64,000 bases of DNA, taken from positions 1,364,001 to 1,428,000 of the forward strand of contig NZ_CP048817.1 in the NCBI RefSeq assembly GCF_014171475.1, given 5' to 3'. The notes below the pieces were generated by a model. The model saw only the letters and a list, made by a program, of their open reading frames with translations, had not been told where the DNA came from and made no database searches. Source of the DNA: Sphingomonas sp. So64.6b. GTDB taxonomy: Bacteria > Pseudomonadota > Alphaproteobacteria > Sphingomonadales > Sphingomonadaceae. Both the position numbers and the translations under genes were made by a program. How positions within the stretch are numbered: position 1 is the first letter of the stretch; each line of letters opens with the position of its first letter. Of this stretch, positions 44,824 through 63,888 are shown one piece after another.

Positions 44824-45125
44824 CGCAGTTCTATTAATAATATCAATCACTTAGCTGCATTCGTGTATAATTCTTTGAACACTTACTCACATTAAAAACC
44901 GTTTTTCGATTGTCGGTAACGGCACAAAATCGCTCACATGAAATCGCGGTCATGCGATCGCGGATGGACGAATAGCAAGTTCGGGACCGCAGGGCACCGT
45001 AGATCCGCCACACGTCGGAGTGAAGGAAGGCGACATGCGGGCCGTTCGAAAAATGTTGGGCTCGACCTTCCAGGTACGACGTCGCCGGTTCCCGCGCTGA
45101 AACGAATGGTTCGCCGGGCGCGAAT
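44824..45125. other. AT-rich then unassigned interval
   Basis: 44824-44935 is clearly AT-richer than anything nearby (TATTAATAATATCAATCACT-like sequence), fitting the junction of an inserted element. From 44936 to 45125 no gene can be supported; a 21-residue frame (MRAVRKMLGSTFQVRRRR...) at 45035 has GAAGGAAGG before it but no other support. Confidence 0.5.
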
Positions 45126-45139
45126 TGCGTAGTTTCCGA
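45126..45139 (+). promoter_or_regulatory. Shared 14-bp element, site 1
   Basis: TGCGTAGTTTCCGA, 146 bp before the lipoprotein-VIT operon (start 45286). It is identical to the sites at 50294, 55355 and 58423. About 20 bp downstream is TATGCT, a possible -10. Confidence 0.75.
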
Positions 45140-45285
45140 TCCTTAGATCTTATCGGGCCTATGCTAGGGTCGCTGCCACACCCAAGCGGCTTTGAGGGAG
45201 TTAGCGCAGTGAGTTCGTTCCCTAGATTATCGACGGTCCGGGAGGGCTGCGTGCTCGCGTCGGCAGCGCCGCGGCGGCGAGCTCG

Positions 45286-45408
45286 ATGATTGCAACAGCA
45301 CTTGGCATCTCGACCGTCGCGCTGGCCGCCTGTGCCAGCGCTCGCCAAGATTATCGCGAGTGCCGCAGCGTGACAAATTTCACCAGCTCCCTCCGACGTC
45401 ACCCATGA
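45286..45408 (+). CDS. 40-aa lipoprotein coupled to the VIT-family gene
   Basis: ATG 45286 opens MIATALGISTVALAACASAR, a compact signal peptide with a perfect lipobox (LAAC), followed by QDYRECRSVTNFTSSLRRHP and a TGA that overlaps the ATG of the next gene (ATGA at 45405-45408). The mature peptide would have about 25 residues with an extra Cys. The lipobox, and the stop/start overlap, argue that it is a real small gene. No family recognised. It is the first gene after shared element 1. Confidence 0.55.
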   Translation: MIATALGISTVALAACASARQDYRECRSVTNFTSSLRRHP

Positions 45409-46106
45409 GCGGCGCGTCACTGAAGGTTGAGCCGCATCGCACTGACAATATTGGCTGGCTGCGCGCTGCGGTGTTGGGGGCGAACGATGGCATCCTGTCT
45501 ACCGCAAGCCTGGTTCTGGGCGTTGCGGCGGCTCATGGCAGCCGAAACGGCGTGCTCGTTGCTGGCGTCGCCGGGCTGGTCGCCGGTGCCATGTCGATGG
45601 CTGCGGGCGAATATGTGTCGGTACATTCGCAGCAGGACACCGAAGACGCCGATATCGCACGCGAACGCGCAGAACTGAGATCTGATGACGGCGGCGAGCA
45701 TCGCGAGCTCGCGGCAATCTATGTCGGTCGAGGCCTTGAGCCGGCGCTTGCCGCCCAGGTTGCCGATCAACTTATGGCGCACGATGCGTTGGGGGCACAT
45801 GCCCGCGACGAGCTCGGCATTACCGAGGCGCTGCGAGCACGTCCCGTTCAGGCCGCTGTGGCATCGGCGATGAGTTTTGCCACTGGCGCGGCACTGCCTG
45901 TTTTGGTGACATGGATCGCACCGCAGTCGATTTTGATCGTCTCGGTTTCATCCACTTCATTGATTTTTCTAGCCGTCCTGGGTGCGCTGGCGGCGCGCGC
46001 GGGAGGGGCGCGCCTTGTTCCGGGAGCTGTCCGAGTCACGTTCTGGGGCGCGCTTGCAATGGGCGTGACGGCAGGGGTCGGCGCTTTGTTTGGCACATCA
46101 ATCTGA
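45405..46106 (+). CDS. VIT1/CCC1-family transporter
   Basis: 233 residues from ATG 45405 (chosen because of the ATGA overlap with the lipoprotein gene). Motifs DNIGWLRAAVLGANDGILST, LVAGAMSMAAGEYVSVHSQQ and AVASAMSFATGAALPVLVTW match the VIT family (DUF125), with five helices and a hydrophilic region between helices 2 and 3 (TEDADIARERAELRSD). VIT/CCC1 proteins move Fe2+ or Mn2+ out of the cytoplasm. In a stress island it may protect from free iron. Regulated probably from element 1. Confidence 0.88.
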   Translation: MSGASLKVEPHRTDNIGWLRAAVLGANDGILSTASLVLGVAAAHGSRNGVLVAGVAGLVAGAMSMAAGEYVSVHSQQDTEDADIARERAELRSDDGGEHRELAAIYVGRGLEPALAAQVADQLMAHDALGAHARDELGITEALRARPVQAAVASAMSFATGAALPVLVTWIAPQSILIVSVSSTSLIFLAVLGALAARAGGARLVPGAVRVTFWGALAMGVTAGVGALFGTSI

Positions 46107-46233
46107 TCCGGCCAGCTATCAGCATGACCCCCGGGATGGGGTCAGTCCGCCGGTGATCCGGTCCCCGATAAGTAGAACCCACAAGGCGGCGCACCGGCCA
46201 AATCTGGCTATTTGGAGGTATCGGAGAATCATC

Positions 46234-46902
46234 TTGATCGCCAATCGCGTTCCGCGCCACGTCGTCGTCCTTGGGCATCCCGCCGTCGATAGCTTCAATC
46301 ATGCGATCGCTGAGAAATACTGCGCCACGGTCCGGGCATGTGGGCAGGAGGCAGTGCTGCGTGACCTGTACGCGCTCGACTTCGATCCGTGCCTGCATGT
46401 GGAGCACCGTCCCGGGCACCAGACGCGCCCGATGTCCGGCGACGTGGCCGGTGAAATCGCTCTGTTGCGCGGTGGGGATACGATCGTGTTTGTCTATCCG
46501 ATGTGGTTCGGCATGCCGCCGGCGATCATCAAAGGGTATGTCGATCGCGTCCTTGGCGAAGCGCTCACGCCTCGCGACATTGCGCATGATGTTCCGGATG
46601 CCATCCTGCATGGGAAATTGTTCGCCACTCTTTCAACATCGGCTACGACCCGCCCCTGGCTGGACGAGCAAGGTCAGCTGGATTCGTTGCGCAATGCATT
46701 CGATCGCTACCTCCTGAAGATCTTTGGCATGCGCGACGGCGGTCACACCCATTTCGATGCCATTGTCGAGGGTCAGCAGGAAGACCATGCCCGTCGGAAT
46801 CTGTCCAACGTGGAGGAACAGGCCCGGAGGCTGTGCGCCGAATTGGCTGCCGAGCACCCCGCCGCGCCGATCGGGGCGCTGTTGGGGGCGGATGCCGAAT
46901 AG
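46234..46902 (+). CDS. NAD(P)H:quinone oxidoreductase-like flavoprotein, copy 1
   Basis: 222 residues from TTG 46234, chosen for GGAGA at 7 bp; the frame is open to 46090. The flavodoxin-2 fold shows HVVVLGHPAVDSFNHAIAEK, VLRDLYALDFDP, VFVYPMWFGMPPAIIKGYVD and a C-terminal helix. It resembles KefF/MdaB/NQO1-type NAD(P)H dehydrogenases that reduce quinones by two electrons. A second copy at 50.4 kb shares the order of motifs ([18 protein letters not shown]). In this island it could feed quinol to the alternative oxidase. Confidence 0.8.
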   Translation: MIANRVPRHVVVLGHPAVDSFNHAIAEKYCATVRACGQEAVLRDLYALDFDPCLHVEHRPGHQTRPMSGDVAGEIALLRGGDTIVFVYPMWFGMPPAIIKGYVDRVLGEALTPRDIAHDVPDAILHGKLFATLSTSATTRPWLDEQGQLDSLRNAFDRYLLKIFGMRDGGHTHFDAIVEGQQEDHARRNLSNVEEQARRLCAELAAEHPAAPIGALLGADAE

Positions 46903-46969
46903 GATCCGCAGCAGCACTCTCGGTTCATTCTCGACAGGCACGTACGTCCCACCCCAGAGTCATCGAGAA

Positions 46970-47671
46970 ATGGGCCGAACTAGGTTTCCCGATTCTCCGA
47001 CGGGGCTCGATTATCCGCTAGGCCATGAGACCGGGCACTTGATCAACGGATCAAACGCCAACTACTTTTTGCCGGAGGACGCCGCCTTGACCGATCTCGC
47101 CACACGAAACGATATCGGACGATCGTCATCAACGTCGGTCGATGTCTCAAGTGACTGGAGCGGCGACCTGACGACGCGTCGTGGATACCAGTTCCATGTC
47201 CGCCCCGCGGTCCCGGCCGACGAGACCGGGCTGGCGGAATTCTTCACGCACGTGACCGCCGACGATCTGCGATTCCGGTTCCTCACTGCGATACGCAAGG
47301 TGAGCCATGAGCAACTGGCGAATCTGGTCAATGTCGATCATCGCCGCACCGAGAATTTCCTGGCGCTCGATCCGGAGACCGGTTTCATCATCGCTACGGC
47401 GATGATGGCGGCGGACAAGGCGCTTGCGAGTGCCGAGGTGGCGATCGCCATTCGCAGTGATTTCAAGGATCGTGGAATCAGCTGGATGCTGCTCGAACAT
47501 GTGGCCAAGTTCGCCGGGGCCTCAGGGATCAAGACGCTCGAATCGATCGAAAGCCGCGACAACCACCAAGCCATCGAACTCGAGCGCGAAATGGGCTTCG
47601 CAGCCCATTCGATCCCGGGTGACCCGACGGTCGTCGTCGTTCGCGCGACGCTTTCTGCGCTGCCAGCCTGA
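46970..47671 (+). CDS. GNAT-family N-acetyltransferase
   Basis: 233 residues from ATG 46970. After a ~70-residue leader without known motif, the GNAT domain starts at YQFHVRPAVPADETGLAEFF and includes HVTADDLRFRFLTAIRKVSH, AEVAIAIRSDFKDRGISWML (the acetyl-CoA-binding strand and loop, with R/Q-x2-G replaced by KDRGIS) and SRDNHQAIELEREMGF. The domain layout resembles the GNAT part of PatZ/Pat-type protein acetyltransferases or acyltransferases in stress islands, but a substrate cannot be given. Confidence 0.8.
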   Translation: MGRTRFPDSPTGLDYPLGHETGHLINGSNANYFLPEDAALTDLATRNDIGRSSSTSVDVSSDWSGDLTTRRGYQFHVRPAVPADETGLAEFFTHVTADDLRFRFLTAIRKVSHEQLANLVNVDHRRTENFLALDPETGFIIATAMMAADKALASAEVAIAIRSDFKDRGISWMLLEHVAKFAGASGIKTLESIESRDNHQAIELEREMGFAAHSIPGDPTVVVVRATLSALPA

Positions 47672-47769
47672 GAATTTTCGACAGACCCAGCATCTGCCGC
47701 CGATAACCGAATTTGACGCAGCCATCGCTGCCGGCTTCGCCGTGCGGCGGAATTCCCAGGAACATTGTT

Positions 47770-48495
47770 ATGGTCAACACCATCCTTTCGCCCGATGCAC
47801 GTGCACTGGCTGACGAGCGTGCTGCAGAGCCCGTCATCCACCACACGCCGAATGGGTTTTCAGATCACTTCGCGCTTGGCTTTACCAAGCTGCTGCGGTT
47901 CAGCGCGGACACCTTCTTCGCCAAGCGTTATGGTCACCGCGCCATCGTCCTCGAGACGGTTGCGGCCGTGCCCGGCATGGTCGGGGCTATGTTCACTCAC
48001 CTGACTTGCCTGCGCCGCATGCGTGATGACCAAGGCTGGATCCGAACCCTGATGGAGGAAGCGGAGAACGAGCGCATGCATCTGATGACCTTTATCGAGA
48101 TCGCCAAGCCCACCCGGTTCGAGCGTATGGTCATCCTCGCCGTCCAGGGCGTGTTCCTCGTCGGCTTTTCGATTCTTTATATCACCTCGTCGCGGACTGC
48201 CCACCGCGTGGTTGGCTATTTCGAGGAAGAGGCGGTTACAAGTTACACGCTCTACCTCCAGGAAATCGACGAAGGCCGCTCGCCCAACGTCCCGGCCCCC
48301 GCAATCGCTAAGCATTATTGGAAGATGGCTGATGACGCGACGCTTCGTGACGTCGTGCTCGTCGTCCGGGATGACGAAGCCCATCATCGCGACGTCAATC
48401 ATGGCTTCGCCAGCACGCTGGGCGGGTCGCCGCGCGACCTGATGGGTATTGCGCCCTATCCGGCGCATGCCACCGACCTTGGAGCGGGTGCCTGA
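47770..48495 (+). CDS. aox: Alternative oxidase (ubiquinol oxidase, non-proton-pumping)
   Basis: 241 residues from ATG 47770. All diiron ligands of the AOX family are in place: LETVAAVPG (Glu62), AENERMHL (Glu101, His104), FEEEAVTSY (Glu152/153) and VRDDEAHHRDVNH (Glu203, His206). Two amphipathic monotopic helices flank them (LAVQGVFLVGFSILYITSSR). It oxidises ubiquinol with O2 to water without pumping protons and resists cyanide. AOX is rare in bacteria; Novosphingobium aromaticivorans is the described case. The quinone reductases nearby could supply its substrate. Confidence 0.93.
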   Translation: MVNTILSPDARALADERAAEPVIHHTPNGFSDHFALGFTKLLRFSADTFFAKRYGHRAIVLETVAAVPGMVGAMFTHLTCLRRMRDDQGWIRTLMEEAENERMHLMTFIEIAKPTRFERMVILAVQGVFLVGFSILYITSSRTAHRVVGYFEEEAVTSYTLYLQEIDEGRSPNVPAPAIAKHYWKMADDATLRDVVLVVRDDEAHHRDVNHGFASTLGGSPRDLMGIAPYPAHATDLGAGA

Positions 48496-48891
48496 GGAAA
48501 GACAGGCGACGCTCGATCAGGCCGTTCGCGCTGATGTCGGGCGGGCTGACGCCGAGACTGCGTAGTCACTGTATCTGAACGGCATGTATTGGTGCAACGC
48601 TTTGCTTGGCGTGACCTGCTCCCCGTTGCCGCTGTGTGCATGCCAAAACGCGGGTGGTTCGATAGCGATCATGGCTGAATGTTCGGGAGGGTTGGCCGGG
48701 CTGCTGCGTTTGCTAACTGGCCCGTCAACTCTAGGCTGACGACCAGGCAATTGCAGAGCGTCCCCACCAGGATCAATGTGCCGGCCGGACTGCGTTCGGG
48801 GTCGAAGACGACGAAATTATTCTTGCCGCACAATTAGGTGCCAGCCTGCAAAAAAGGTTGGCTGGAATCAGTTTGCCGCCGCCAACGATCT
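48496..48891. other. 396-bp interval without a supported gene
   Basis: No convincing frame. It includes a partial resemblance to the island motif at 48559 (TGCGTAGTCACTG) and a weak hairpin CCAGCC...GGCTGG at 48841, which may end a transcript. A minus-strand stretch (SPAGTLILVGTLCNCLVVSL) looks slightly protein-like but cannot be assigned. Confidence 0.5.
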
Positions 48892-49830
48892 CTACGGCGC
48901 GTCGGCCGCCACAACCGTGAGCGGCTGCCCGGTTCCGGCAGCCTTCAACGTATCACGGGTGACCAATATTGTCGTACCCGGTTTAAGGATAGTTGCCAGC
49001 AGCGCGCTGAATTCCACAGGAAGGTGCCCGGAGGCCTGTTCTCGCGCGGTCAGTTCTGCCCCGACTGGCGTCGGCTGACCGGGCAGGGGAAGCCGGAACC
49101 AGTGCTGCCCTGCTGCGTCGATCGACTGGAGCGTGAAGGCCGCCGTCACCGCTACCGGATCGTCAAGAACGATGGCGCTCGACCCGATCTCGACGCCGTT
49201 GCGGAGCACGACGAGGCGCCGATCGCGTCCGCTGATCACAATTGACACCGGGCCAGTCGCGGACCGTTCAGGATGCCAATCATAATCGACACTGACATCG
49301 TATTCTCCCGCCAGTACCGGGGGCACGGGCACGGCGACCGGGACCGTCGATGCCTCGGTAATCACGACGGTCATACCGAGCCTGGTCAGCCCATAAAGCA
49401 GCTTTGCGAAGGCGGGAGGCAAACGCACGCAGCCATGCGAGGCCGGATAGCCCGGGAGGTTGCCGGCATGCAGCGCGATGCCGCCCCAGGTCAGCCGCTG
49501 CATGAAGGGCATCGGCGCATCCGAATAGATGTTCGACACATGGTCGACATCCTTTTGCAGGATCGTGAAAACACCTGTCGGCGTGCGGTGGCCGGCGGCA
49601 CCCGTTGATACGGTCGACACGCCGATCGGGACGCCATTGCGGTATGCATAAGCACGCTGCGTTTTCAGGTTTACGACGATTATGACCGGACCCGCCGGTG
49701 CGATGCCGGGAGCCCAGAGATATTCGCCCGGCTTGAGTTGCTCGATCTGTCCATCGACTTCCACTGGGGAAGACTGTGAGATCGCCGCAGTTGCCGTACC
49801 GAGCGCGAGAAATGCAGCGAGCTTCCACAT
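48892..49830 (-). CDS. L,D-transpeptidase (YkuD domain)
   Basis: 312 residues from ATG 49830 (MWKLAAFLALGTATAAISQS, a signal peptide). The YkuD domain is at residues ~45-170: VNLKTQRAYAYRNGVPIGVS, GHRTPTGVFTILQKD, GIALHAGNLPGYPASHGCVR with His and catalytic Cys, LPPAFAKLLYGLTRLG. It forms 3-3 peptidoglycan cross-links or attaches lipoproteins, a pathway often used in stressed or non-growing cells. The rest (residues 180-312) is a beta-rich domain of unknown fold. The preceding 90-aa gene overlaps its start. Confidence 0.9.
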   Translation of the reverse strand: MWKLAAFLALGTATAAISQSSPVEVDGQIEQLKPGEYLWAPGIAPAGPVIIVVNLKTQRAYAYRNGVPIGVSTVSTGAAGHRTPTGVFTILQKDVDHVSNIYSDAPMPFMQRLTWGGIALHAGNLPGYPASHGCVRLPPAFAKLLYGLTRLGMTVVITEASTVPVAVPVPPVLAGEYDVSVDYDWHPERSATGPVSIVISGRDRRLVVLRNGVEIGSSAIVLDDPVAVTAAFTLQSIDAAGQHWFRLPLPGQPTPVGAELTAREQASGHLPVEFSALLATILKPGTTILVTRDTLKAAGTGQPLTVVAADAP

Positions 49831-49835
49831 GCGCG

Positions 49836-50108
49836 TCACGTGAGTTCTCCGACAGTGGAAGTGACCGTTGTACGAACCCCTCCGGCCGAACTCACACCAA
49901 CAGCAATGGCATTTGGATTTGCAGCGTTGGCTTGCCGAACGACCGGTCGCGGCGCTGGTCGGCGCAGCGCGATCAACGCTTGCTCATAATAGCTTGCAAG
50001 TGCCCGATGGGAGGCGCGAGCACAGTCGCTCGCTGCGGCTTCCGCCATGTCGAGCGATACCATCACGCGCTTCTTCAAATATGCCGCTTCTAAGTTGTCG
50101 ACGTACAC
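49836..50108 (-). CDS. Hypothetical 90-aa protein upstream of the L,D-transpeptidase
   Basis: Starts at GTG 50108 with TAGGAGA seven bases before it. The product is MYVDNLEAAYLKKRVMVSLD then MAEAAASDCARASHRALASY, a helical N-terminal half, then a low-complexity tail. Its stop overlaps the start region of the transpeptidase gene. Family unknown. The Shine-Dalgarno and overlap support it as a real gene in the transpeptidase transcription unit. Confidence 0.5.
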   Translation of the reverse strand: MYVDNLEAAYLKKRVMVSLDMAEAAASDCARASHRALASYYEQALIALRRPAPRPVVRQANAANPNAIAVGVSSAGGVRTTVTSTVGELT

Positions 50109-50293
50109 ATGATGTCTCCTAAACAACCGCCTCGGCCTCGGCCGCCGCGATCACCTTGTCTAATCCGGAGAGGCTGATTGGTCTGGCCTCGGATAACACT
50201 TACCCCAAGGAGTGCCGGTTCGGGACGTGCCGGTGTCATCTATCCCGCGTCGATTCAGGTCTCCGCAGATGGGGCCAGCGAGCATTTGAGTTC

Positions 50294-50307
50294 TGCGTAG
50301 TTTCCGA
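50294..50307 (+). promoter_or_regulatory. Shared 14-bp element, site 2
   Basis: TGCGTAGTTTCCGA, 125 bp before the flavoprotein-phosphoketolase-acetate kinase operon (start 50433). Identical in sequence and orientation to site 1. Confidence 0.75.
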
Positions 50308-50432
50308 GGCTGACCAAGATCCGGCACTGGGCGTATGTGCGACTGAGATCAGCAACAGGCCCGCTGGTCCCCATGTTCGCTTCTTTCCGGCATCGCTTCG
50401 AAAGGTCGCGATCGATCATCGGAATGCGCGTC

Positions 50433-51116
50433 ATGACATCGCCAACACCGGATCAAGCCCGCAATGGCCGGCACGTGGTCATTCTCTGCCACCCGGCTCC
50501 AGGCAGCTTCAATCACTCCATCGCTGACACCTACTGCAAAGTCGTGAGGGCGAACGGGCATCACGTGGTGTTCCGGGATCTGTACGCGATGGGCTTTGAT
50601 CCAATCCTTCAGGCCAGCGAGCGTCCGGGAGCAGGCTTTTTGCCGTCACCCGATATTGCGCGCGAGCTTGCGACGATCGCTGGCGGCGACGTTTTTGTGC
50701 TCATCTATCCGATCTGGTTTGGCACCCCGCCAGCGATGATGAAGGGCTATGTCGAGCGTGTGCTTGGCTCGGGCATTGGACCGGACGCGGTCCAACGTCG
50801 CCTGCAGACACCCTTGCTGGGCAACAAGCGCCTGCTGAGTTTCACCACCTCGGCGGCGAGCAATGGCTGGCTCAACGAACAGGGGCAGGAAAGGTCGCTT
50901 CGCGATGTATTTGACGACTATCTGGCGCACGCCTTCGGTATGCACTCGCAGTCGCATGTCCGCTTCGATCACATCACCGACGGTCTCAGCGAACGCTTCG
51001 CGCTGCAATATCTTCGTGACGTTGAGGATCGGGCGCGGCGAATGTGTGCCGAGGTCGCGTTCGGCGACGAAGCGCTACTCGCTAATGCCGGACTTGTGGG
51101 GTTGTTCGCACAATGA
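50433..51116 (+). CDS. NAD(P)H:quinone oxidoreductase-like flavoprotein, copy 2
   Basis: 227 residues from ATG 50433 (other in-frame starts at 50337 and 50424). The same fold as copy 1: [56 protein letters not shown], a loop around [16 protein letters not shown] and a C-terminal [17 protein letters not shown]. The stop TGA overlaps the phosphoketolase ATG (ATGA), so both are translated from one mRNA. It lies 125 bp after site 2. Confidence 0.82.
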
Positions 51117-53529
51117 ACCTCTTTGCCTCAACGCCTCATAGCCGTCCCGCAGCATCGACCGGAAATCAATCCAACCCGCGCCGACCCCTGGCGCCTGAGT
51201 TACTGCGCCGCATGGATGCATATTGGCGCGCGGCCAACTATCTGTCGGTCGGCCAGATCTATCTGCGCGATAATGCGCTGCTCGAGCGTCCTCTGGCGAT
51301 CGCGGACGTAAAGCCCCGGCTGCTCGGCCATTGGGGTACGACGCCAGGCCTGAATTTCCTCTATGTCCACCTCAACCGGTTGATCGTCGAGCATGACCTG
51401 AACATGATCAACGTCATCGGCCCGGGCCATGGCGGACCGGGACTGGTCGCCAACACCTATCTGGAGGGTTCCTACACCGAGCGTTATCCAGCGATCGAGC
51501 GCAGCCGGAGCGGGCTGCACCGGCTGTTCCGGCAATTCTCCTGGCCCGGCGGGATCCCGAGCCATGTCGCACCCGAGACTCCCGGGTCGATCCATGAGGG
51601 CGGCGAGCTCGGTTATTCGCTCGCTCATGCTTATGGTGCCGCGTTCGACAATCCCGATCTGATCGTCGCCTGTGTTATCGGCGACGGCGAGGCCGAGACT
51701 GGCGCGCTTGCGACCAGTTGGCATTCCAACAAATTCCTCAATCCGGCACGCGATGGCGCGGTGCTGCCGATCCTCCATCTCAACGGGTTCAAGATCGCCA
51801 ACCCGACCATCCTGGCCAGGATCGATCCGCATGAGCTGAGCGACCTGCTGCGCGGCTATGGTTACGACCCCTTTTCGTCGAGGGCGATGATCCCGCCGAA
51901 ATGCACCAGTTGCTGGCCGGTGCGCTCGACCGGGCGCTCGCCCGCATCCAGGAAATCCAGACGGCGGCACGTGCCCCTGGGGTCATTCCCGAACGACCTC
52001 GCTGGCCGATGATCGTGTTCCGGACGCCCAAGGGCTGGACCGGTCCGAAGATGGTTGACGGCAAGCCGGTCGAAGGCACCTGGCGGGCGCATCAGGTGCC
52101 GATCGCCAATTTCGATGATCCCGAACATCTATGCCAACTCGAGACATGGATGCGCAACTACCGGCCAGCGGAATTGTTCGACGAGCATGGCAAGTTCCAC
52201 GACGACTATGCGTCGCTGGCGCCGACCGGGCACAGGCGGATGGGCTCCAACCCCCATGCCAATGGCGGTGAGCTGCTCCAGTCGCTGTCGCTTCCCGATT
52301 TTCGCGACTACGCCGTGGCCGTATCAGTGCCGGGACAGGTGAGGGCAGAGGCCACCCGCGTCCTTGGCTCTTATCTGCGCGACACGATGCGGCGCAATCT
52401 GGGGTCAGTGAACTTCCGGCTGTTCGGCCCCGACGAGACCGCCTCGAACCGGCTCGACGCGGTATATGAAGTCTCCGGCAAGGCGTGGATGGCGAGGACC
52501 GAGGAGATCGATACCGATCTCAGCGCCGACGGACGCGTGATGGAGATACTGAGCGAGCATCTCTGCCAGGGTTGGCTCGAGGGCTATCTGCTGACCGGCC
52601 GCCACGGCCTGTTCTCCTGTTACGAGGCGTTCGTCCATATCGTCGATTCAATGGTCAACCAGCACGCCAAATGGCTGAAGGTTACCAAGAAGATCCCGTG
52701 GCGCGCGCCGATCGCCTCGCTCAATTACCTGCTGACCTCGCATGTCTGGCGCCAGGATCATAACGGCCTGTCGCATCAGGATCCCGGCTTCATCGACCAT
52801 GTCGCCAATAAGACCGCGGACCTCGCGCGCATCTATTTGCCGCCCGATGCGAACTGCCTGTTGTCCGTCGCCGACCATTGCCTGCGCAGCCGCGGCTATG
52901 TGAACGTGATCGTCGCGGGCAAGCAGCCGGAATGGCAATGGCTTGGGATCGACGAGGCCGTGCGGCACTGCACGACCGGCGCCGGTATCTGGCACTGGGC
53001 GAGCGATGAGGTCGAGCCCGATATCGTCATGGCGTGCGCCGGCGACGTGCCCACGCTCGAGACGATGGCTGCGGTCAGCTTGCTGCGGCAATATGTACCG
53101 GACATTCGCATCCGGGTCGTCAATGTCGTCGACCTGATGGTCCTGCAGCCGCAATCGGAACACCCACACGGGCTCGACGACCGCGCGTTCGATGCGCTCT
53201 TCACAGCCGACAAACCGGTGATCTTCGCGTTCCACGGCTATCCCGCAATGGTCCACAAGCTAACCTATCGCCGCACCAACCACGCCAACATCCATGTCCG
53301 CGGATACAAGGAAGAAGGCACCACGACGACGCCGTTCGACATGGTCGTGCTCAACGATCTCGACCGCTACCGCCTGGCGCTGGATGCGATCGAGCGGGTG
53401 CCGCGCCTGTATCATATCGTCGATCGGGAGCGTGACCGCTACTGGGCGATGATGGAGCGCCACAAGCTCCACATCGCCGAGCATGGTGATGATCTGCCCG
53501 AAGTCCGTGACTGGCAATGGCAGCGGTGA
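51113..53529 (+). pseudogene. xfp: Phosphoketolase (xylulose-5-P/fructose-6-P), frame-broken at one T
   Basis: Together the two frames encode ~805 residues of a full Xfp enzyme, which converts xylulose-5-P or fructose-6-P plus phosphate into acetyl-phosphate. The first frame (51113-52012) carries [37 protein letters not shown] and the ThDP site [16 protein letters not shown]. The second (from 51901, ending 53529) resumes at [19 protein letters not shown]. The break is at the T4 run 51872-51875: one more T gives [15 protein letters not shown] without interruption. The rest is intact. It may be a real lesion or an assembly error. The end overlaps ackA by 13 bp. Confidence 0.9.
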
Positions 53530-54566
53530 TCGCCGATCTTCGCCCCGTGGTGCTCGCGTTCAATAGCGGTTCGTCGTCGCTCAAATTCGGCCTTTTTGAA
53601 CTCGGTGGCGCGGTGCCCAGGGAACTGGTCGCCGGCAGCTTCGAGACGACCGACGACCACGGCGCCCTGTTCGATTCAGTCGACGCGGCGCTTGGTCGGA
53701 CCGATGCGCCACCGCCAATCGCGATCGGCCACCGGGTGGTTCATGACGGGGCGAAACAAAATGCCCATTGCCTCATCGACGATGCCGTCATTCGTGACCT
53801 GGTCAGCGCCTGTGTGTTCGCACCGCTCCACGGCCCTGCCGCGCTGGCGCTGATCAAGGCTGCGCGCACGCATTATCCGACACTGCCGCAGGCCGCCTGC
53901 TTCGACACGGCATTCCATGCGGACATGCCCGATGTGGCAACGACACTCCCTATTCCTGGTGCCTTTCGCGCACCCGGTGTCCGGCGCTATGGTTTTCACG
54001 GGCTGTCATGCGAATCTATCGTCCGGCAACTTGGGTCCGATCTGCCGGCACGGCTGGTCCTCGCCCATCTCGGCAATGGCGCGAGTGTCACGGCCGTGCG
54101 GGATGGCCGGTCGATCGACACCAGCATGGGGCTGACCCCCGCCGGCGGCGTGGTGATGGCGACGCGCAGCGGGGATATCGACCCCGGTGTCCTGCTCTAT
54201 CTGCTGCGCGAAAAAGGCCTGGACAATGGAGCGCTGGAACAGCTCATTGACCGTCGATCCGGCATGCTGGGCGTGTCCGGCCTGTCCGGCGATATGCGCG
54301 TCCTTCACGAGGCAGCGGCACATGATCCGGACGCGGATCTCGCGATCCGGCTATTCTGCCAGTCCGTCCGCAAGCAGATCGGCGCGATGATCGCGGTCCT
54401 CGAGGGGATCGATATGCTGGTTCTGACTGGCGGGATCGGGGAGCATGACACACTGGTTGGCGATGCGATCCGTCGGCAACTGGCGTGGAGCGGCGCGAAA
54501 ATCCGTGTCCTGCGATCGCAAGAAGACGAGCAGATCGCACTGCACACGGCCAGCCTTGCCGCCTGA
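53517..54566 (+). CDS. ackA: Acetate kinase
   Basis: 349 residues. ASKHA fold motifs: [79 protein letters not shown] and TGGIGEHD. It makes ATP from acetyl-phosphate, the product of the phosphoketolase gene it overlaps by 13 bp. It is about 50 residues shorter than the usual ~400; the deficit is in loops and the C-terminus. Co-transcription and translational coupling with xfp are strongly implied. Confidence 0.92.
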
Positions 54567-54611
54567 TCGCGGGGCAGCGATTGCACTCCCCGCGAGCCCC
54601 GCGAAGATACG

Positions 54612-55274
54612 CTAGGCGATAGTGAGCATGTTGACGACGCTGACCGCACCGGCTGCCTGCAACGCCGTCTGTTCGGCCACGTCGCGTTCGTGAATGGAGG
54701 AGACGCTGCCGGTCAGGCGAACCGTGCCGCCATCGACCGCGACCATGACGGTATCGCGATCCAGGAAGGCCGAGCGATGCAGGGCGCTGCGAATGCTCTC
54801 CCGCACGTCGAGCACATCGACGCGAGGTTTGACCGTGATCATGTTCACCACGCCGACGACACCGGCGATCGGCCGCACATTCCGTTCCGCCGCATCGCGT
54901 TCGAAATGCCAATCTACTTCGCCGAGCAGGGTGATCCACCCGTCTTCGACGCGCGGGACGATCGCGCCTTGCGGAATCGTCCCGTCGGACCCCAGTCGCA
55001 AGCTGGCAGCAGCGGCGATGTCTTCGTCGTGAAACTTGGTGCTGCCGTTCAGCACCACCTCAACATGTTCGACGATCGCCTGCACACCCTTGACCCTGCT
55101 CGCGGCGGTTTCCGCTGCATGTTTGCCGAAGAAGCTGGTCGTATGCCCGCTCAGCGTCACCACGCCGTCCTTGACAGTGACGCCGATCTGGCCGGCCGGT
55201 ACGCTCGGATCCCAACTCAATTCAGCGACTATATCGCGTTGCAGATCGGTATCGCAGCTCGTGGGGGCAGTCAT
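54612..55274 (-). CDS. Protein with three BON domains, copy 1
   Basis: 220 residues. Three consecutive BON repeats: IGVTVKDGVVTLSGHTTSFF (~25-95), DGWITLLGEVDWHFERDAAE (~105-165) and DGGTVRLTGSVSSIHERDVA (~180-220), each with the GxVxLxG beta-alpha pattern. BON domains bind membranes or phospholipids; no signal peptide is seen, so a cytoplasmic or inner-membrane-associated role is likely. It is monocistronic behind shared element 3. Very similar to copy 2 (56774-57427). Confidence 0.88.
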   Translation of the reverse strand: MTAPTSCDTDLQRDIVAELSWDPSVPAGQIGVTVKDGVVTLSGHTTSFFGKHAAETAASRVKGVQAIVEHVEVVLNGSTKFHDEDIAAAASLRLGSDGTIPQGAIVPRVEDGWITLLGEVDWHFERDAAERNVRPIAGVVGVVNMITVKPRVDVLDVRESIRSALHRSAFLDRDTVMVAVDGGTVRLTGSVSSIHERDVAEQTALQAAGAVSVVNMLTIA

Positions 55275-55354
55275 CAGCGAACACTTTCTCGAAAAAGACG
55301 ATCGATCCTATCGACGCCATGGTGATTATGCCCGATCGCTGTCGCCCGATACGC

Positions 55355-55368
55355 TCGGAAACTACGCA
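55355..55368 (-). promoter_or_regulatory. Shared 14-bp element, site 3
   Basis: The minus strand reads TGCGTAGTTTCCGA, 80 bp before the BON protein copy 1 start. A CATAAT hexamer about 25 bp downstream of the element could be the -10. Confidence 0.75.
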
Positions 55369-55400
55369 GAGTCCCGCGGCGTGATGTGGAGCCGGCCGCG

Positions 55401-56777
55401 CTATTCCATAGCAGCGAGAAGGGCATCGACCTCGATCCGCGCGAAGGTCGTGAAGCTGTCGGCAATTGCATAGGGCAGCAAGAGCGTTCGCCGGTTGAGG
55501 ATGGCGCCGCAGCTATAGATGACGTTCGGCACATAACCGTCGCGCTCTTCAGCCCTGCATCGCAGCAGCGGATGGGTCATCCGAGCCATGACCTTGGTCG
55601 GGTCAGTCTTGTCCAAGAGACAGGCGCCGATGCAATAGTTTCGCACCGCTCCGACCCCATGGGTCAGGACCAGCCAGCCTTCGTCGATCTCGATCGGAGA
55701 ACCGCAATTGCCGATCTGGATGAACTCCCAGGGCCAGCGCGGTGTGACCGTCCGGGTGCCACCTTGCCAATTATAGAGGTCGTCCGACATGAGCAGCCAG
55801 ATATTCTCATGGTCCTGACGTCCGAGCATCGCATATCGGCCGCCGATTTTGCGCGGAAACAATGCCATCCCCTTGTTGGCGGTCGCATCGCCGCGCAACG
55901 CGCTGAGTTCGAACGTTGCAAAGTCGGCGGTTCTGAGAAGCTCCTGCCGGATCGCGCGGCCGCCAAAGGCGGTATAGGTGCCGAGATAGGTCACGATCCC
56001 GTCGTCATTGGTAAAGCGCACCAGGCGCAGATCCTCGATCCCCTGTCGTTGATGGTCGGTGATCGGGTAGATCACCACTTCGGAGAGGTCGCGGCTGGCA
56101 TCGCAGAACAAGCGGACGCCGGGATCGTCCGGCGCGCCGCCCGGGATGCTCTCGACCCGTGGCGAAATCGCTTCGGCACTTGGTTCATCCAGCGTCACGG
56201 CGCCGTCTGCGGACCATAGCCCGGTGCGAAACGTGACGGATGAGATATGGCCTTCGCCGACGCCGCGCAGCGACAGTATGAACCGGATCGCGCCGGCCGG
56301 CGTCCGCGATTGGTCGGGATGAGCGACGATGCTGGGGTTGAACAACGCCGCTGCTTCGAAGGAATATTCCTCGCTGAAATATCCGCCGATGAGCAGCGCT
56401 TGAGTCGATGTGACGGACCCTGGGTCGATGACCAGCCCGTTTACTTCGTGAAACCGTCGTGAGAGGATGACCTCGATGTCACGGTGACGATTGGACAGCC
56501 CATCCGATACGCGCTCCCACTCATGCCGAAGCTGCGTTTCATCAAGGCTAAGCACCCGGTTCGCGACGCGCTGCGCGCGGGAGCAACCGGCCGATGCGAA
56601 GGCTGGCGGATCATCAGCCGGCATGAACGGCCGGATTACGACACGAGACGGATCGGCCCGAATCATGATCGGCAAATGGGTCACGATATCATGATCGATC
56701 ACCGGATGATTGTCGGGGTCGAACGAGATCGCGGGTGCGCTGGCCGACCGGCTTGTAGCAGCGGCTGGATTGATCAT
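55401..56777 (-). CDS. Glycoside hydrolase family 130 (DUF377-like) phosphorylase/hydrolase
   Basis: 458 residues. The five-bladed beta-propeller shows FNPSIVAHPDQSRTPAGAIR, LSLRGVGEGHISSVTFRTG, YLGTYTAFGGRAIRQELLRT, NKGMALFPRKIGGRYAMLGR, GNCGSPIEIDEGWLVLTHGV and SCGAILNRRTLLLPYAIADS, the motif order of GH130 mannoside phosphorylases/mannosidases. The start codon (ATG 56777) overlaps the stop of BON copy 2 (ATGA), so the two are translated together. It probably acts on a stored or recycled glycan; substrate unknown. Confidence 0.85.
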   Translation of the reverse strand: MINPAAATSRSASAPAISFDPDNHPVIDHDIVTHLPIMIRADPSRVVIRPFMPADDPPAFASAGCSRAQRVANRVLSLDETQLRHEWERVSDGLSNRHRDIEVILSRRFHEVNGLVIDPGSVTSTQALLIGGYFSEEYSFEAAALFNPSIVAHPDQSRTPAGAIRFILSLRGVGEGHISSVTFRTGLWSADGAVTLDEPSAEAISPRVESIPGGAPDDPGVRLFCDASRDLSEVVIYPITDHQRQGIEDLRLVRFTNDDGIVTYLGTYTAFGGRAIRQELLRTADFATFELSALRGDATANKGMALFPRKIGGRYAMLGRQDHENIWLLMSDDLYNWQGGTRTVTPRWPWEFIQIGNCGSPIEIDEGWLVLTHGVGAVRNYCIGACLLDKTDPTKVMARMTHPLLRCRAEERDGYVPNVIYSCGAILNRRTLLLPYAIADSFTTFARIEVDALLAAME

Positions 56778-57427
56778 TCGACTGAAAGCAGATTGATCAC
56801 CGCAGCCGCACCCGGCGAGGCCCAGGCGATCGCTTCCGCAGTCCTGCGGTCACGCGAACTCGATACCTTTCCGGCCAATCTTACCGTTCCACCTTCGGCG
56901 CTGACCGAAACATGTTCGGGAGCGACCAGCCATGACCGGTGAAGCGCGTGGCGAATCTCGTCTTCGATGATCTCGACGTCCACTCGCGGCTTGATCGCGA
57001 GGTCGTTGGATATGCCGACAACGCCGAAAAGGCGCTCGACGACCTGCTCGGCCGCATCTTTCTCGAAACGCCAATGTACTTCACCGGTCAACGTGACCCA
57101 GCCCCTTTCGACGGTTGGTTTTATCCGATCGTGGGGAATCGCGACGTCACATGACAGTCGATTGACAATGGCGGTGGCGATCTCGTCGTCGGTGCGCTTG
57201 CCGAGATGGTTCAGTCGAACCTCGATCTCTTCCGCGACCCCCCTGACGCCTTTGACCCTTCGGGCTGCAGCCTCTGCGGCGCATTTGTCCGCGTAGTTTT
57301 CAACATGGCCGGTGAGCGTTATGATGCCACTGTCAGCGACCACACCGATATGTCCAGCGGGCACCCGCGGGTCCCAATTGAGTTCGGCCAGCACGTCTTT
57401 TTGAAGTTGGGTGTCCGTTGACATCAT
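56774..57427 (-). CDS. Protein with three BON domains, copy 2
   Basis: 217 residues with the same three-BON layout as copy 1: IGVVADSGIITLTGHVENYA, ERGWVTLTGEVHWRFEKDAA and EGGTVRLAGKVSSSRDRRTA. The starts also agree (MSTDTQLQKDVLAELNWDPR vs CDTDLQRDIVAELSWDPSVP), a recent duplication. It lies between the universal stress protein gene (61 bp upstream) and GH130 (ATGA overlap), all in one minus-strand unit behind element 4. Confidence 0.88.
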   Translation of the reverse strand: MMSTDTQLQKDVLAELNWDPRVPAGHIGVVADSGIITLTGHVENYADKCAAEAAARRVKGVRGVAEEIEVRLNHLGKRTDDEIATAIVNRLSCDVAIPHDRIKPTVERGWVTLTGEVHWRFEKDAAEQVVERLFGVVGISNDLAIKPRVDVEIIEDEIRHALHRSWLVAPEHVSVSAEGGTVRLAGKVSSSRDRRTAEAIAWASPGAAAVINLLSVE

Positions 57428-57488
57428 CGTCTCCTGAATGCCGCCACCATATCAACCGACAGAAGCGGGCCGATCAGCGAGGCCGACC

Positions 57489-58310
57489 TTAATGTGAGAG
57501 TAGCGCGCAACGATTGTTGCGCAGCAACAAGTCGCGCGTGACGCCGCCAAATGCCCATTCGCGCAGGCGGTTATGGCCATAGGCCCCGGCGACGATCAGA
57601 TCCGCGCAATGGTCCTTGGCGATGAGCGCGAGAGTCCCGACAGAGTCGCCATAGGAGTCGCCAACGATCGTATCGGCGCTAACCATGTGCCGTGACAGCC
57701 AAGCCACCACGTCGTTGATCTGCGATCGTGCCTCTACCAGCTTTGGTGTCACCTCGACGATGAGCACCCGGTCGGCCTGCTCAAGTATTGGCAGGGCGTC
57801 GGTGATGGCGCGCCGGCACTCGCGCGTATTGGACCAGGCGATGATCACCGTTTCGAAGATCGCTGGCGCAGGTCCGTCCGGCACGACGAGCACGGGTCGG
57901 CCGGCGCGAATGATGAGTTCGCCGGTGTCGGCGTGCGTCAGGGGATTGCGCTGCGGGCCCGAGCCCGCGCTTGTGATGATAAGGTCCGCACACCGTGCTT
58001 CACTGGCGACAATCTCGGCAATGCACCCCATGGTCGGTATCGAGCGCCATTCCAGAATAAAGGGCTGAATTTCGGTGCAGTCGCGAAACTCGGTCTCGGC
58101 ACGCTTCAGTTCCTGATCGACAATGTCTCGTTCCAGCGTGACGAGCTCGCCGGTAAAATAGCCGTCGGAGGTTCCGATCTCCATTGGCTGACAGACGGCC
58201 ACGCCGATGACCTTTGCCCTATACCTCTCGGCCAATTTCGCCGCGAGCGACAGCGTCGCCATATTGGGGTGGCCCGCGTCGAGGTGAACCATCAAAGTTG
58301 AATACGTCAT
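57489..58310 (-). CDS. Universal stress protein with two UspA domains
   Basis: 273 residues from ATG 58310 (MTYSTLMVHLDAGHPNMATL). Each half has a UspA-type fold, the second with the ATP-binding-like GDSYGDSVGTLALIAKDHCA and LIVAGAYGHNRLREWAFGGV (G-x2-G-x9-G pattern). It is made in many bacteria under starvation, hypoxia or oxidative stress. Its promoter region has shared element 4; BON copy 2 and GH130 follow on the same mRNA by inference. Confidence 0.88.
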   Translation of the reverse strand: MTYSTLMVHLDAGHPNMATLSLAAKLAERYRAKVIGVAVCQPMEIGTSDGYFTGELVTLERDIVDQELKRAETEFRDCTEIQPFILEWRSIPTMGCIAEIVASEARCADLIITSAGSGPQRNPLTHADTGELIIRAGRPVLVVPDGPAPAIFETVIIAWSNTRECRRAITDALPILEQADRVLIVEVTPKLVEARSQINDVVAWLSRHMVSADTIVGDSYGDSVGTLALIAKDHCADLIVAGAYGHNRLREWAFGGVTRDLLLRNNRCALLSH

Positions 58311-58422
58311 GGCGTCCGTCCTCATCGGCAACATGACCTGGCATCAGGCGATGTCACATGGCGGCCTGACCAAAATCACGCCTGCACATACATTTGTCGG
58401 CAAACCTGGGGCAGTAACAGCA

Positions 58423-58436
58423 TCGGAAACTACGCA
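58423..58436 (-). promoter_or_regulatory. Shared 14-bp element, site 4
   Basis: The minus strand reads TGCGTAGTTTCCGA, 112 bp before the universal stress protein start (58310). It lies in the intergenic region following the UPF0104 gene. Confidence 0.75.
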
Positions 58437-58480
58437 TGCCGGGCGATGTGTTCGTGCTGACGACTGAGATGCGGAGGGTA

Positions 58481-62109: not shown

Positions 62110-63774
62110 TCAGGCGGGGTGGAGAATGGCTGCCGCCGGCCCGGCCTCGCCATCATGCAACGCGCGATATGCCTTGTAGAGAATCCGCGGATCAAACGCG
62201 CCCTTATAGACAGGCGGCGGTGTGCGATGCAGGCCGAGCAACTGGTAAACGGCAGCCTGGGCGGAGCGGACCGAATATTCGACGGTGAAGACGACGTCGT
62301 CCGGCAGCTCGCAATATTGGCCGATAAAGGCGAGGTTGGTCGAGCCTTGCGGTACAACCTGCGGGCGGTCGCCCTTGGCGCGGGGCAGGAACTGGCTGGT
62401 GATGAACGGCATCATGCACGGGATGCAGGTCGATGACCCCAAGATCTCATCAGCCTCGGCGACGATCCCGAGATGCCCGAGGATTTCGGTCATGATCTCA
62501 CGGCCGGTGCAGGCCGACATCGGTTTCCTGACGAAGTCGCCAAGGGCTTCGACTGACAGGCCATAGCCCCAGAAGACCGCGACATCGTCCGGCTGGCCGA
62601 CAAAATGCGGCTGATACGGGATGACGATGGAGGCGAGCCAGGCGGATTTCGGAAAGGTGATCAATCCACCTTCGCCGGGGACGTTGCCGGTTGCGTCGCG
62701 CACCAGCGCCAGAAAACCAGCATCATGCAGCGTGGTGGTGAACGATACCCATTTCGACTGGTCGACATGACCGTCGAACGCCGATGGGTTGCCGAAATGC
62801 GGCCGGTCAGCAGCGATCTTCTCCCACAGCGCCCAAGCGCCGCCGTCGTTCTTGCCCAGCAATCGAGGCACACTGTCCATGCTGCCGAGCTGCGAGCCCT
62901 CGGTCATTGATCCCAGCGTTACGAATATATTGTCGTGCGCGGCGACCGGGATTTCGGTCGTGGTCCCGCCTTCGACCGTTCGAATTCCCCGGACGGTCAT
63001 TTCGCCGTCGACGTCGGACATAGTGAGATCCGTGACGCGGGTATCGAGGCGAAAATGGACGTCGCGCTCCGCCAGCCATTTGTGCAGCGGACGCACCAGC
63101 GAATCATATTGATTGTACCGGGTGCGCATGATTCCGCTCAGGCGACTGAAGCCCTCGACCATATGCGAGAATCTAACCAGGTAGCGCTTGAACTCGACGG
63201 CGCTGTGCCATGGCTGGAAGGCGAAGGTCGTACACCACATCAGCCAGAAATTGGTATCGAAGAAAGCAGGGTCGAACTGATCAGCGATGCTGGTGCGACC
63301 GAGTAGCAATTCGGGCTCGATCGCGAGGCGTTCGATCGTCAGGATGTGCTGCTCGCTCAACCCGAACGCCGGGGCGACCTGGCGATGCCCATCCTCGAAC
63401 AGGCGAGACTTGGACGATGTCTTGATCGTCTCGTTCCAATCAAGAATCTCCTGAGTGACGGTTGACTGCGCATCAAGCGTGGGAATCGACGCGAACAGGT
63501 CGAACGTGCACAGATATTTGCTCTCGAGCATCCGGCCGCCGCGCAGGACATAGCCGTTTTCGGGCGATCCCGCGCCATCGAGCGCACCGCCGATAACATG
63601 GCCCTCGTCGATGATGGTAATGTCCGAACCGCGCATGTCACCGTCGCGGATCATGAACGCAGCCGCCGCGAGCGAAGCGATGCCGCCACCGACAAGGAAG
63701 GCCCGGCTTTCGCGCTTCGGCAGCGGCACACCGCCCGCTGTATCCGGATTTGCGGCGCGGTTCAGTTCGGTCAT
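62110..63774 (-). CDS. ohyA: Oleate hydratase (MCRA-type, FAD-dependent)
   Basis: 554 residues from ATG 63774 (AGGAAG seven bases upstream). FAD-binding motif FLVGGGIASLAAAAFMIRDG, followed by IDEGHVIGGALDGAGSPENG, FAFQPWHSAVEFKRYLVRFS, MRTRYNQYDSLVRPLHKWLA and GSSTCIPCMMPFITSQFLPR, all typical of myosin-cross-reactive-antigen fatty acid hydratases. It adds water to the cis-9 double bond of unsaturated fatty acids, detoxifying them. First gene of the unit with mgtA and the UPF0104 gene. Confidence 0.92.
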   Translation of the reverse strand: MTELNRAANPDTAGGVPLPKRESRAFLVGGGIASLAAAAFMIRDGDMRGSDITIIDEGHVIGGALDGAGSPENGYVLRGGRMLESKYLCTFDLFASIPTLDAQSTVTQEILDWNETIKTSSKSRLFEDGHRQVAPAFGLSEQHILTIERLAIEPELLLGRTSIADQFDPAFFDTNFWLMWCTTFAFQPWHSAVEFKRYLVRFSHMVEGFSRLSGIMRTRYNQYDSLVRPLHKWLAERDVHFRLDTRVTDLTMSDVDGEMTVRGIRTVEGGTTTEIPVAAHDNIFVTLGSMTEGSQLGSMDSVPRLLGKNDGGAWALWEKIAADRPHFGNPSAFDGHVDQSKWVSFTTTLHDAGFLALVRDATGNVPGEGGLITFPKSAWLASIVIPYQPHFVGQPDDVAVFWGYGLSVEALGDFVRKPMSACTGREIMTEILGHLGIVAEADEILGSSTCIPCMMPFITSQFLPRAKGDRPQVVPQGSTNLAFIGQYCELPDDVVFTVEYSVRSAQAAVYQLLGLHRTPPPVYKGAFDPRILYKAYRALHDGEAGPAAAILHPA

Positions 63775-63874
63775 GAGCACTTCCTTGGCGGCTTGGCGGC
63801 TTGGCGATCGGATCGAGGTCGATCCGACGCGAACAGGTTTCCGCAGTGCAGACTCTGACCGTCCGGCGACAGGA

Positions 63875-63888
63875 TCGGAATCTACCTA
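63875..63888 (-). promoter_or_regulatory. Degenerate copy of the shared element, site 5
   Basis: The minus strand reads TAGGTAGATTCCGA, 11 of 14 positions like TGCGTAGTTTCCGA, 100 bp before the oleate hydratase start and in the expected orientation. Confidence 0.5.

What the first reader, a model, noticed from the sequence alone, without database searches (positions are those of the whole stretch)
45126..58436. Identical 14-bp element before four separate units of the stress/energy island
TGCGTAGTTTCCGA occurs at 45126 (+), 50294 (+), 55355 (-) and 58423 (-). Every copy is intergenic, points toward the gene it precedes and lies 80-146 bp before the first start codon. Four exact 14-mers by chance in 13 kb are not credible. 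The genes controlled would be lipoprotein-VIT-(quinone reductase-GNAT-AOX), quinone reductase-phosphoketolase-acetate kinase, BON1, and Usp-BON2-GH130. I infer an activator box. The core GTA-x-TTTCC resembles rhizobial FixJ sites as I remember them, pointing to a FixJ/NarL-type regulator; that link is a hypothesis.
Basis: partly seen in the sequence, partly recalled or inferred. Interest (0 to 1): 0.87.

Follow-up and report, generated by a model that had tools for sequence, protein, structure and literature searches.

The report
FixJ-type switch before stress genes
A short DNA signal repeated in front of stress and energy genes of a Sphingomonas-type bacterium is probably the landing site of an oxygen-sensing two-part switch encoded close by, and similar signals recur in distant relatives beside a giant all-in-one version of that switch.

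Summary
In detail: TGCGTAGTTTCCGA occurs four times at the stated places. The genome has eight exact copies, seven within 23 kb and one 227 kb away; a degenerate form finds nine sites in 5.06 Mb, reversed control none. The box is part of a promoter: over 55 distinct exact sites it is followed by T at +4 (51 of 55) and a -10-like T at +27 (31) and A at +28 (42). A FixL/FixJ gene pair lies in or near each of the two clusters, the nearer one 12 kb past the window's end; both FixL copies keep the haem histidine and arginine. In 201 genus genomes a degenerate box occurs in 31 of 33 with this FixL type or a ~1,500-residue CheB-CheR-kinase-FixJ protein, and in 5 of 168 others. The core equals nine of ten bases of the in-vitro FixJ consensus quoted in PMC4999443. 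Most likely: an O2-sensing FixLJ system directly activating a low-oxygen/stress regulon. Looser boxes also flank the fused regulator elsewhere in the class. Binding, activation and signal were not tested.

The parts
45126..45139 (+). box 1 (exact), before small ORF - VIT - quinone reductase - GNAT - AOX unit
45142..45147 (+). putative -35 of box 1 (CTTAGA)
   Evidence: position from the 55-site alignment; sequence
45165..45170 (+). putative -10 of box 1 (TAGGGT, +26 to +31)
45360..46106 (+). VIT family gene
   Evidence: Pfam VIT1
46090..46902 (+). flavodoxin-fold quinone reductase-like gene (true start probably further in)
   Evidence: Pfam Flavodoxin_2
46724..47671 (+). GNAT acetyltransferase-like gene (longest ORF; true start probably further in)
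   Evidence: Pfam Acetyltransf_1
47713..48495 (+). alternative oxidase gene
   Evidence: Pfam AOX
50294..50307 (+). box 2 (exact), before quinone reductase - phosphoketolase - acetate kinase
50310..50315 (+). putative -35 of box 2 (CTGACC)
50334..50339 (+). putative -10 of box 2 (TATGTG)
50433..51116 (+). flavodoxin-fold quinone reductase-like gene (my choice of start)
51113..53529 (+). phosphoketolase gene, split over two overlapping frames
53517..54566 (+). acetate kinase gene
   Evidence: Pfam Acetate_kinase
55355..55368 (-). box 3 (exact), before BON gene 1
55347..55352 (-). putative -35 of box 3 (GTATCG, weak)
55323..55328 (-). putative -10 of box 3 (TAATCA)
54612..55274 (-). BON-domain gene 1
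   Evidence: Pfam BON
58423..58436 (-). box 4 (exact), before Usp - BON2 - GH130
58415..58420 (-). putative -35 of box 4 (CTGTTA)
58391..58396 (-). putative -10 of box 4 (CAAATG, weak)
57489..58334 (-). universal stress protein gene
   Evidence: Pfam Usp
56774..57427 (-). BON-domain gene 2
   Evidence: Pfam BON
55401..56777 (-). GH130-family gene
   Evidence: Pfam Glyco_hydro_130
63875..63888 (-). diverged candidate box 5 (TAGGTAGATTCCGA)
   Evidence: 1.15 such matches expected per shuffle when one mismatch is allowed; this one has none
62110..63780 (-). MCRA-family (oleate-hydratase-like) gene behind box 5
   Evidence: Pfam MCRA

Best explanation
The 14-mer is the binding site of a FixJ-subfamily response regulator at class II-type activator promoters. 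When oxygen falls, the haem-PAS kinase FixL phosphorylates FixJ; FixJ~P binds TGCGTAGTTTCCGA two bases upstream of a weak -35 ([CG]TGA[CT]-like) and helps sigma-70 polymerase use a TANNNT -10 that begins about 27 bases after the box (box centre near -45, inferred). The targets are direct effectors: quinone reductases, alternative oxidase, phosphoketolase-acetate kinase, Usp, BON and VIT proteins, a zinc alcohol dehydrogenase. Shown here: the box, its fixed spacing to promoter-like elements, its confinement to two clusters that hold or adjoin fixLJ, its co-occurrence with this FixL clade, and conserved haem residues. Inferred: binding, activation, oxygen as the signal, transcript starts.
For: Nine of nine degenerate hits genome-wide lie in the two clusters, control none; fixLJ beside or in both. 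FixJ and FixL by Pfam and PDB sequence matches; haem-aligned His in 30 of 31 and Arg in 31 of 31 FixL loci. Promoter positions over 55 exact sites; TA at +26 to +29 in 55 of 82 sites of a named scan against 189 of 3,280 control windows. Degenerate box in 31 of 33 genomes with the regulator and 5 of 168 without, reversed control 8 hits in 201 genomes. All 28 box-linked FixL rows fall in one clade of 32. Core equals nine of ten bases of GTAGTTTCCC, as quoted in PMC4999443 (passages). First genes behind boxes fall in the same families in several genomes.
Against: No binding or expression data. FixLJ of the other clade keep the haem residues but have no box in 20 of 20 loci, so FixLJ in general does not predict it. 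G021 and G192 have the FixL type but not the degenerate box (G021 has near forms; G192 none with two mismatches or fewer in 19 kb); G006 and G207 have an exact box without either regulator. The helix motif does not cleanly part the clades. No box precedes fixL in this genome. The FixL cut of 64% was chosen afterwards, and Fisher's test ignores relatedness. A third FixJ-like protein is encoded at C1:3354198.
Confidence: 0.85

Rival explanations
1. The box is read by another LuxR/FixJ-type regulator of the genome (for example the FixJ-like protein at C1:3354198-3354797), and linkage to fixLJ is incidental.
For: That protein is 43% identical to FixJ; many LuxR-type regulators exist; distant box genomes often lack this FixL (10 of 16).
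Against: Clustering of all nine sites at the fixLJ loci; co-occurrence with this FixL clade or the fused regulator. I did not test whether the third protein also tracks the box.
Confidence: 0.1
2. The box is the -35 element of an alternative (ECF-type) sigma factor.
For: A gene that looks like an ECF sigma factor lies close by at L021:15021-15611 (family recalled from sequence, not scanned).
Against: The first conserved downstream element, T at +4, and the TA at +27/+28 fit an extra -35 between box and -10; 26 bases from box end to -10 is too long for a -35/-10 spacer (spacer rule recalled). Tracking of FixJ-type regulators.
Confidence: 0.03
3. The copies are remnants of a mobile or duplicated DNA piece, without regulatory function.
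For: Identical copies crowded in one island; the second cluster carries paralogous genes.
Against: Flanks share only the promoter positions; the four window copies all point at a gene; the box precedes BON, phosphoketolase and alcohol dehydrogenase genes in other alphaproteobacterial records too.
Confidence: 0.02

Closest known systems
FixLJ two-component system of rhizobia and Caulobacter
   Same: Haem-PAS kinase plus REC-LuxR regulator, overlapping genes, GTAGTTTCC core
   Different: None of the nine boxes of this genome precedes a fixK or nifA gene as far as annotated here; targets are stress and energy effectors. PMC4999443 gives fixK, nifA, fixX and SMc03253 in Rhizobiales and fixK alone in Caulobacterales (passages)
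CheB-CheR-PAS-kinase-REC-REC-LuxR hybrid proteins of about 1,450-1,500 residues
   Same: C-terminal FixJ-like REC+HTH; looser boxes with the same promoter spacing in their flanks
   Different: One polypeptide; boxes mostly of TGAGTA or TAGGTA type; no match in this genome at E<=1e-200
DosR/DevR hypoxia regulon of mycobacteria (recalled, not compared)
   Same: NarL/FixJ-family regulator controlling Usp-type and energy genes in low oxygen
   Different: Different organisms, sensor kinases and binding motif; analogy only

Membership tests
FixLJ two-component system | FixL: PAS domain with haem-ligating His and distal Arg (BjFixL H200, R220; numbering recalled) | tested here: met
   His and Arg present in both own copies; 30 of 31 and 31 of 31 loci; alignment to PDB FixL chains
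FixLJ two-component system | FixL: HisKA + HATPase kinase | tested here: met
   Pfam; phospho-acceptor His in 31 of 31 loci
FixLJ two-component system | FixJ: receiver + LuxR-type HTH | tested here: met
   Pfam Response_reg and GerE; best PDB match FixJ 5xso
FixLJ two-component system | Binding site with GTAGTTTCC-type core | tested here: met
   Sequence match to the quoted consensus, nine of ten bases; binding itself not tested
FixLJ two-component system | Acts through fixK (and nifA) | tested here: not met
   First genes behind the nine boxes are VIT unit, quinone reductase, three BON/Usp units, a 201-aa protein without Pfam match, zinc ADH, phosphoketolase, GNAT; indirect control of fixK not excluded
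FixLJ two-component system | Oxygen-controlled phosphorylation | not testable with these tools
   needs biochemistry
Crp/FNR (FixK, FnrN) box | Palindrome TTGAT-N4-ATCAA (recalled) | tested here: not met
   by reading the box and the aligned flanks

The most novel reading that the evidence does not exclude
A class-wide alphaproteobacterial low-oxygen/stress regulon is defined by a FixJ-type promoter (roughly T[GA]nGTAn[TA]TyCCGA-n2-[CG]Tg-n~20-TA) that can be driven by two interchangeable regulators: one clade of haem FixLJ, or a ~1,500-residue CheB-CheR-PAS-kinase-REC-REC-LuxR protein that puts chemotaxis-type methylesterase and methyltransferase domains, a kinase and the DNA-binding output on one chain. 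Target families (BON, phosphoketolase, alcohol dehydrogenase, Usp, GrpE/DnaK, P-type ATPase, cytochrome bd) stay alike when the regulator changes.
Probability: 0.6. Interest if true: 0.75.

Novelty: new variant of a known kind. Interest (0 to 1): 0.62.

Why it matters
FixLJ is a textbook bacterial oxygen sensor, described mainly as the top of a nitrogen-fixation cascade acting through fixK and nifA (PMC4999443, passages). A FixLJ branch that directly runs stress and fermentative-energy genes would be a rewired version with an easily recognised operator. The same operator gives a concrete way to assign targets to a giant fused kinase found in several alphaproteobacterial families. The paper searches made here (open-licence papers only, several lists capped) showed no description of such a regulon; subscription literature was not searched.

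Tried and rejected
Chance: excluded by shuffles and reversed controls. RNA element or tRNA at the sites: no Rfam match at gathering score in 43000-64000 and no tRNA in 40000-64000. A consensus sigma-70 scan of 45000-58700 found three sites (shuffles 3.6), none at the boxes; that fits activator-dependent promoters but proves nothing. A text search for the motif letters held 262 papers; the 20 listed looked unrelated by title. FixLJ in general as predictor: rejected, since 116 of 201 genomes have a FixL-like match at E<=1e-60 and 20 of 20 sampled other-clade loci have no box. The exact 14-mer as family-wide form: rejected; with T at +4 it is in 5 of 296 order-level genomes including this one and in 0 of 17 class-level stretches around the fused regulator, where looser forms occur.

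Limits. The 64% FixL cut was set after looking; the next best was 59% in G002. In the tree clade stretches were 16-20 kb and other-clade stretches 7.5-7.9 kb, and the box label refers to the same stretch only (G022's boxes lie on another contig); the genome-wide counts do not have this bias. The looser pattern was drawn from sites seen before it was applied to the class sample. The G186 match to the fused regulator covers residues 40-1009 only. First genes are called automatically: of 54 distinct exact sites, three were dropped (L107, L123:5075, L125) and six frames re-chosen by hand, giving 51 proteins for Pfam. In the named scan 80 of 107 stretches were listed; I set 23 as Sphingomonas or near apart, and of the other 57 sites 48 had a gene called. 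Some of those 57 are from clearly unrelated phyla and are probably chance.
Full report
What was checked. The exact 14-mer is at all four stated places and in none of 100 shuffles. The window is part of a one-contig genome of 5,057,175 bp, which has eight exact copies, no one-mismatch copy and twelve two-mismatch copies. Seven exact copies fall between C1:1409126 and 1432193: the four of the window and three just beyond its right end. The eighth is at 1659276. A degenerate form, TNNGTRNTTYCCGANNNT, gives nine hits genome-wide: the eight and TACGTGGTTTCCGA at 1665326; the reversed control gives none. A diverged window candidate, TAGGTAGATTCCGA at 63875-63888(-), lies 94-100 bp before an MCRA-family gene; its -10 is weak.

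The box is part of a promoter. Among 55 distinct exact sites from this and related genomes no base reaches half of any of the 16 columns before the box. After it, +3 is C or G in 53 of 55, +4 is T in 51, +27 is T in 31 and +28 is A in 42. That reads as box, two bases, a [CG]TGA[CT]-like -35, about 18 bases, and a TANNNT -10. If the -10 starts at -12, the box spans about -52 to -39 (inferred). In a scan of named species genomes for TGCGTAGTTTCCGANNCTG, 55 of the 82 sites read have TA within +26 to +29, against 189 of 3,280 four-base windows at other offsets.

The regulator. Outside the window lie fixL (C1:1440637-1442337, -) and fixJ (1440021-1440641, -), overlapping by a few bases and followed by a single-domain receiver gene. 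They are 8 kb from the nearest box and 12 kb past the window's end. The second cluster runs phosphoketolase, acetate kinase, fixL, fixJ, then GNAT and an L,D-transpeptidase-like gene (names by sequence), with one exact and one diverged box. Pfam gives PAS-PAS-HisKA-HATPase and REC-GerE for the island pair; best PDB sequence matches are FixL and FixJ entries. The residues aligned to haem His and distal Arg are present in both own copies, in 30 of 31 and 31 of 31 loci checked.

Co-occurrence. In 201 genomes the exact box is in 23, with 2 reversed-control hits. FixL at 64% identity or more is in 32. The fused regulator is in 4: G019, G022, G031 and, over residues 40-1009, G186. G019, the FixL-negative genome with seven hits, is one of the four with the fused regulator. 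Contrary cases: G021 and G192 have the FixL type but not this form; G006 and G207 have an exact box and neither regulator, G006 before an alcohol dehydrogenase like the one in this genome.

Which FixLJ. In a tree of 52 FixL rows all 28 rows with a box in their stretch lie in one clade of 32 (support 100/99); the 20 rows outside have none (stretch sizes differ, see limits). The other clade keeps the haem His in 20 of 20 and the Arg in 19 of 20. Its FixJ helix reads IS[PAST]RTVE in the 19 that could be read; the island clade reads IATRTVE in 24 of 32, IS[TS]RTVE in 6, with two not usable. So the helix does not part the clades cleanly. Two clade members, L104 and L105, have lost the haem His and show no box in their stretch.

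Targets. Of 51 first genes behind exact sites Pfam finds Flavodoxin_2 in 9, YkuD in 7, ADH_N in 5, phosphoketolase in 4, VIT1, BON and Usp in 3 each, MCRA, acetate kinase, GrpE and Alginate_exp in 2 each. Of 48 first genes outside the set-aside Sphingomonas loci, BON and REC are in 4 each, ADH_N and PRC-barrel in 3 each, phosphoketolase, cytochrome bd subunit I, P-type ATPase, LpxR and Crp-type HTH in 2 each, Hsp70 and GrpE in 1 each. In L127 the box is followed by Usp, fixL, fixJ and the receiver gene, which suggests self-activation there.

A second kind of regulator. Of 16 hand-picked box genomes outside Sphingomonas, 10 have no match to this FixL at E<=1e-50, but all 16 have FixJ relatives, in 12 of them inside open frames of 1,424-1,612 residues. 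Four of these proteins read as CheB, CheR, PAS, HisKA, HATPase, two receivers and LuxR HTH. In a class sample drawn without regard to boxes 15 of 385 genomes have it, and 13 of 17 stretches around it hold the looser box: 25 sites, reversed control none, 22 of 25 with TA at +26 to +29. The stricter pattern finds 11 sites in 10 of the 17, the exact 14-mer none. That the fused protein reads these boxes is inferred from linkage.

Literature. I saw passages of PMC4999443, PMC13327599 and PMC7713065; everything else was search listings. PMC4999443 quotes the in-vitro FixJ consensus GTAGTTTCCC and GTAMGTAG and the S. meliloti fixK site TAAGTAATTTCCCTTA; the original papers were not seen. PMC13327599 reports GTACGTAG in the R. 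palustris fixK promoter. PMC7713065, on a sphingomonad, mentions FixLJ once, in general terms.

Verdict. The element is best read as the operator of a FixJ-subfamily activator, probably under oxygen control through FixL. The part of widest interest lies outside the given coordinates: one promoter architecture with two kinds of FixJ-type regulator across the class.

Noticed in passing
window 51113-53529 (+): The phosphoketolase gene is split over two overlapping frames (ORFs 51113-52012 and 51901-53529); a pseudogene or a sequencing error. A second, full-length copy (799 aa) is at L024:9362-11761.
   Followed up: partly
L303, L304, L307, L308 and L353-L369: A ~1,450-1,500-residue CheB-CheR-PAS-kinase-REC-REC-LuxR protein with FixJ-like output and FixJ-type boxes in its flanks; 15 of 385 class genomes.
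   Followed up: partly
L021:11521-11943 (-), also L127:11457-11873 and L121:8068-8502: A single-domain receiver gene sits just downstream of fixJ in all three stretches read; a candidate feedback partner of FixL, in the manner of FixT (recalled).
   Followed up: no
L104 (G186) and L105 (G162): Two FixL proteins of the island clade have Asp or Ala in place of the haem His, and no box in their 19-kb stretch.
   Followed up: no
L024:9277-16924: A second cluster partly duplicates the island: phosphoketolase, acetate kinase, FixL, FixJ, GNAT and L,D-transpeptidase-like genes, 227 kb away.
   Followed up: partly
L021:15021-17537 (+): Genes that look like an ECF sigma factor, a FecR-type regulator and an IS5-type transposase lie right of fixLJ (by sequence, not scanned).
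   Followed up: no
L021:3370-3972 (-): A 201-aa protein behind an exact box has no Pfam match.
   Followed up: no
G031 (genus genome): 24 degenerate boxes in one genome, two fused regulators and a FixL of the island clade: the largest regulon in the set of 201.
   Followed up: no
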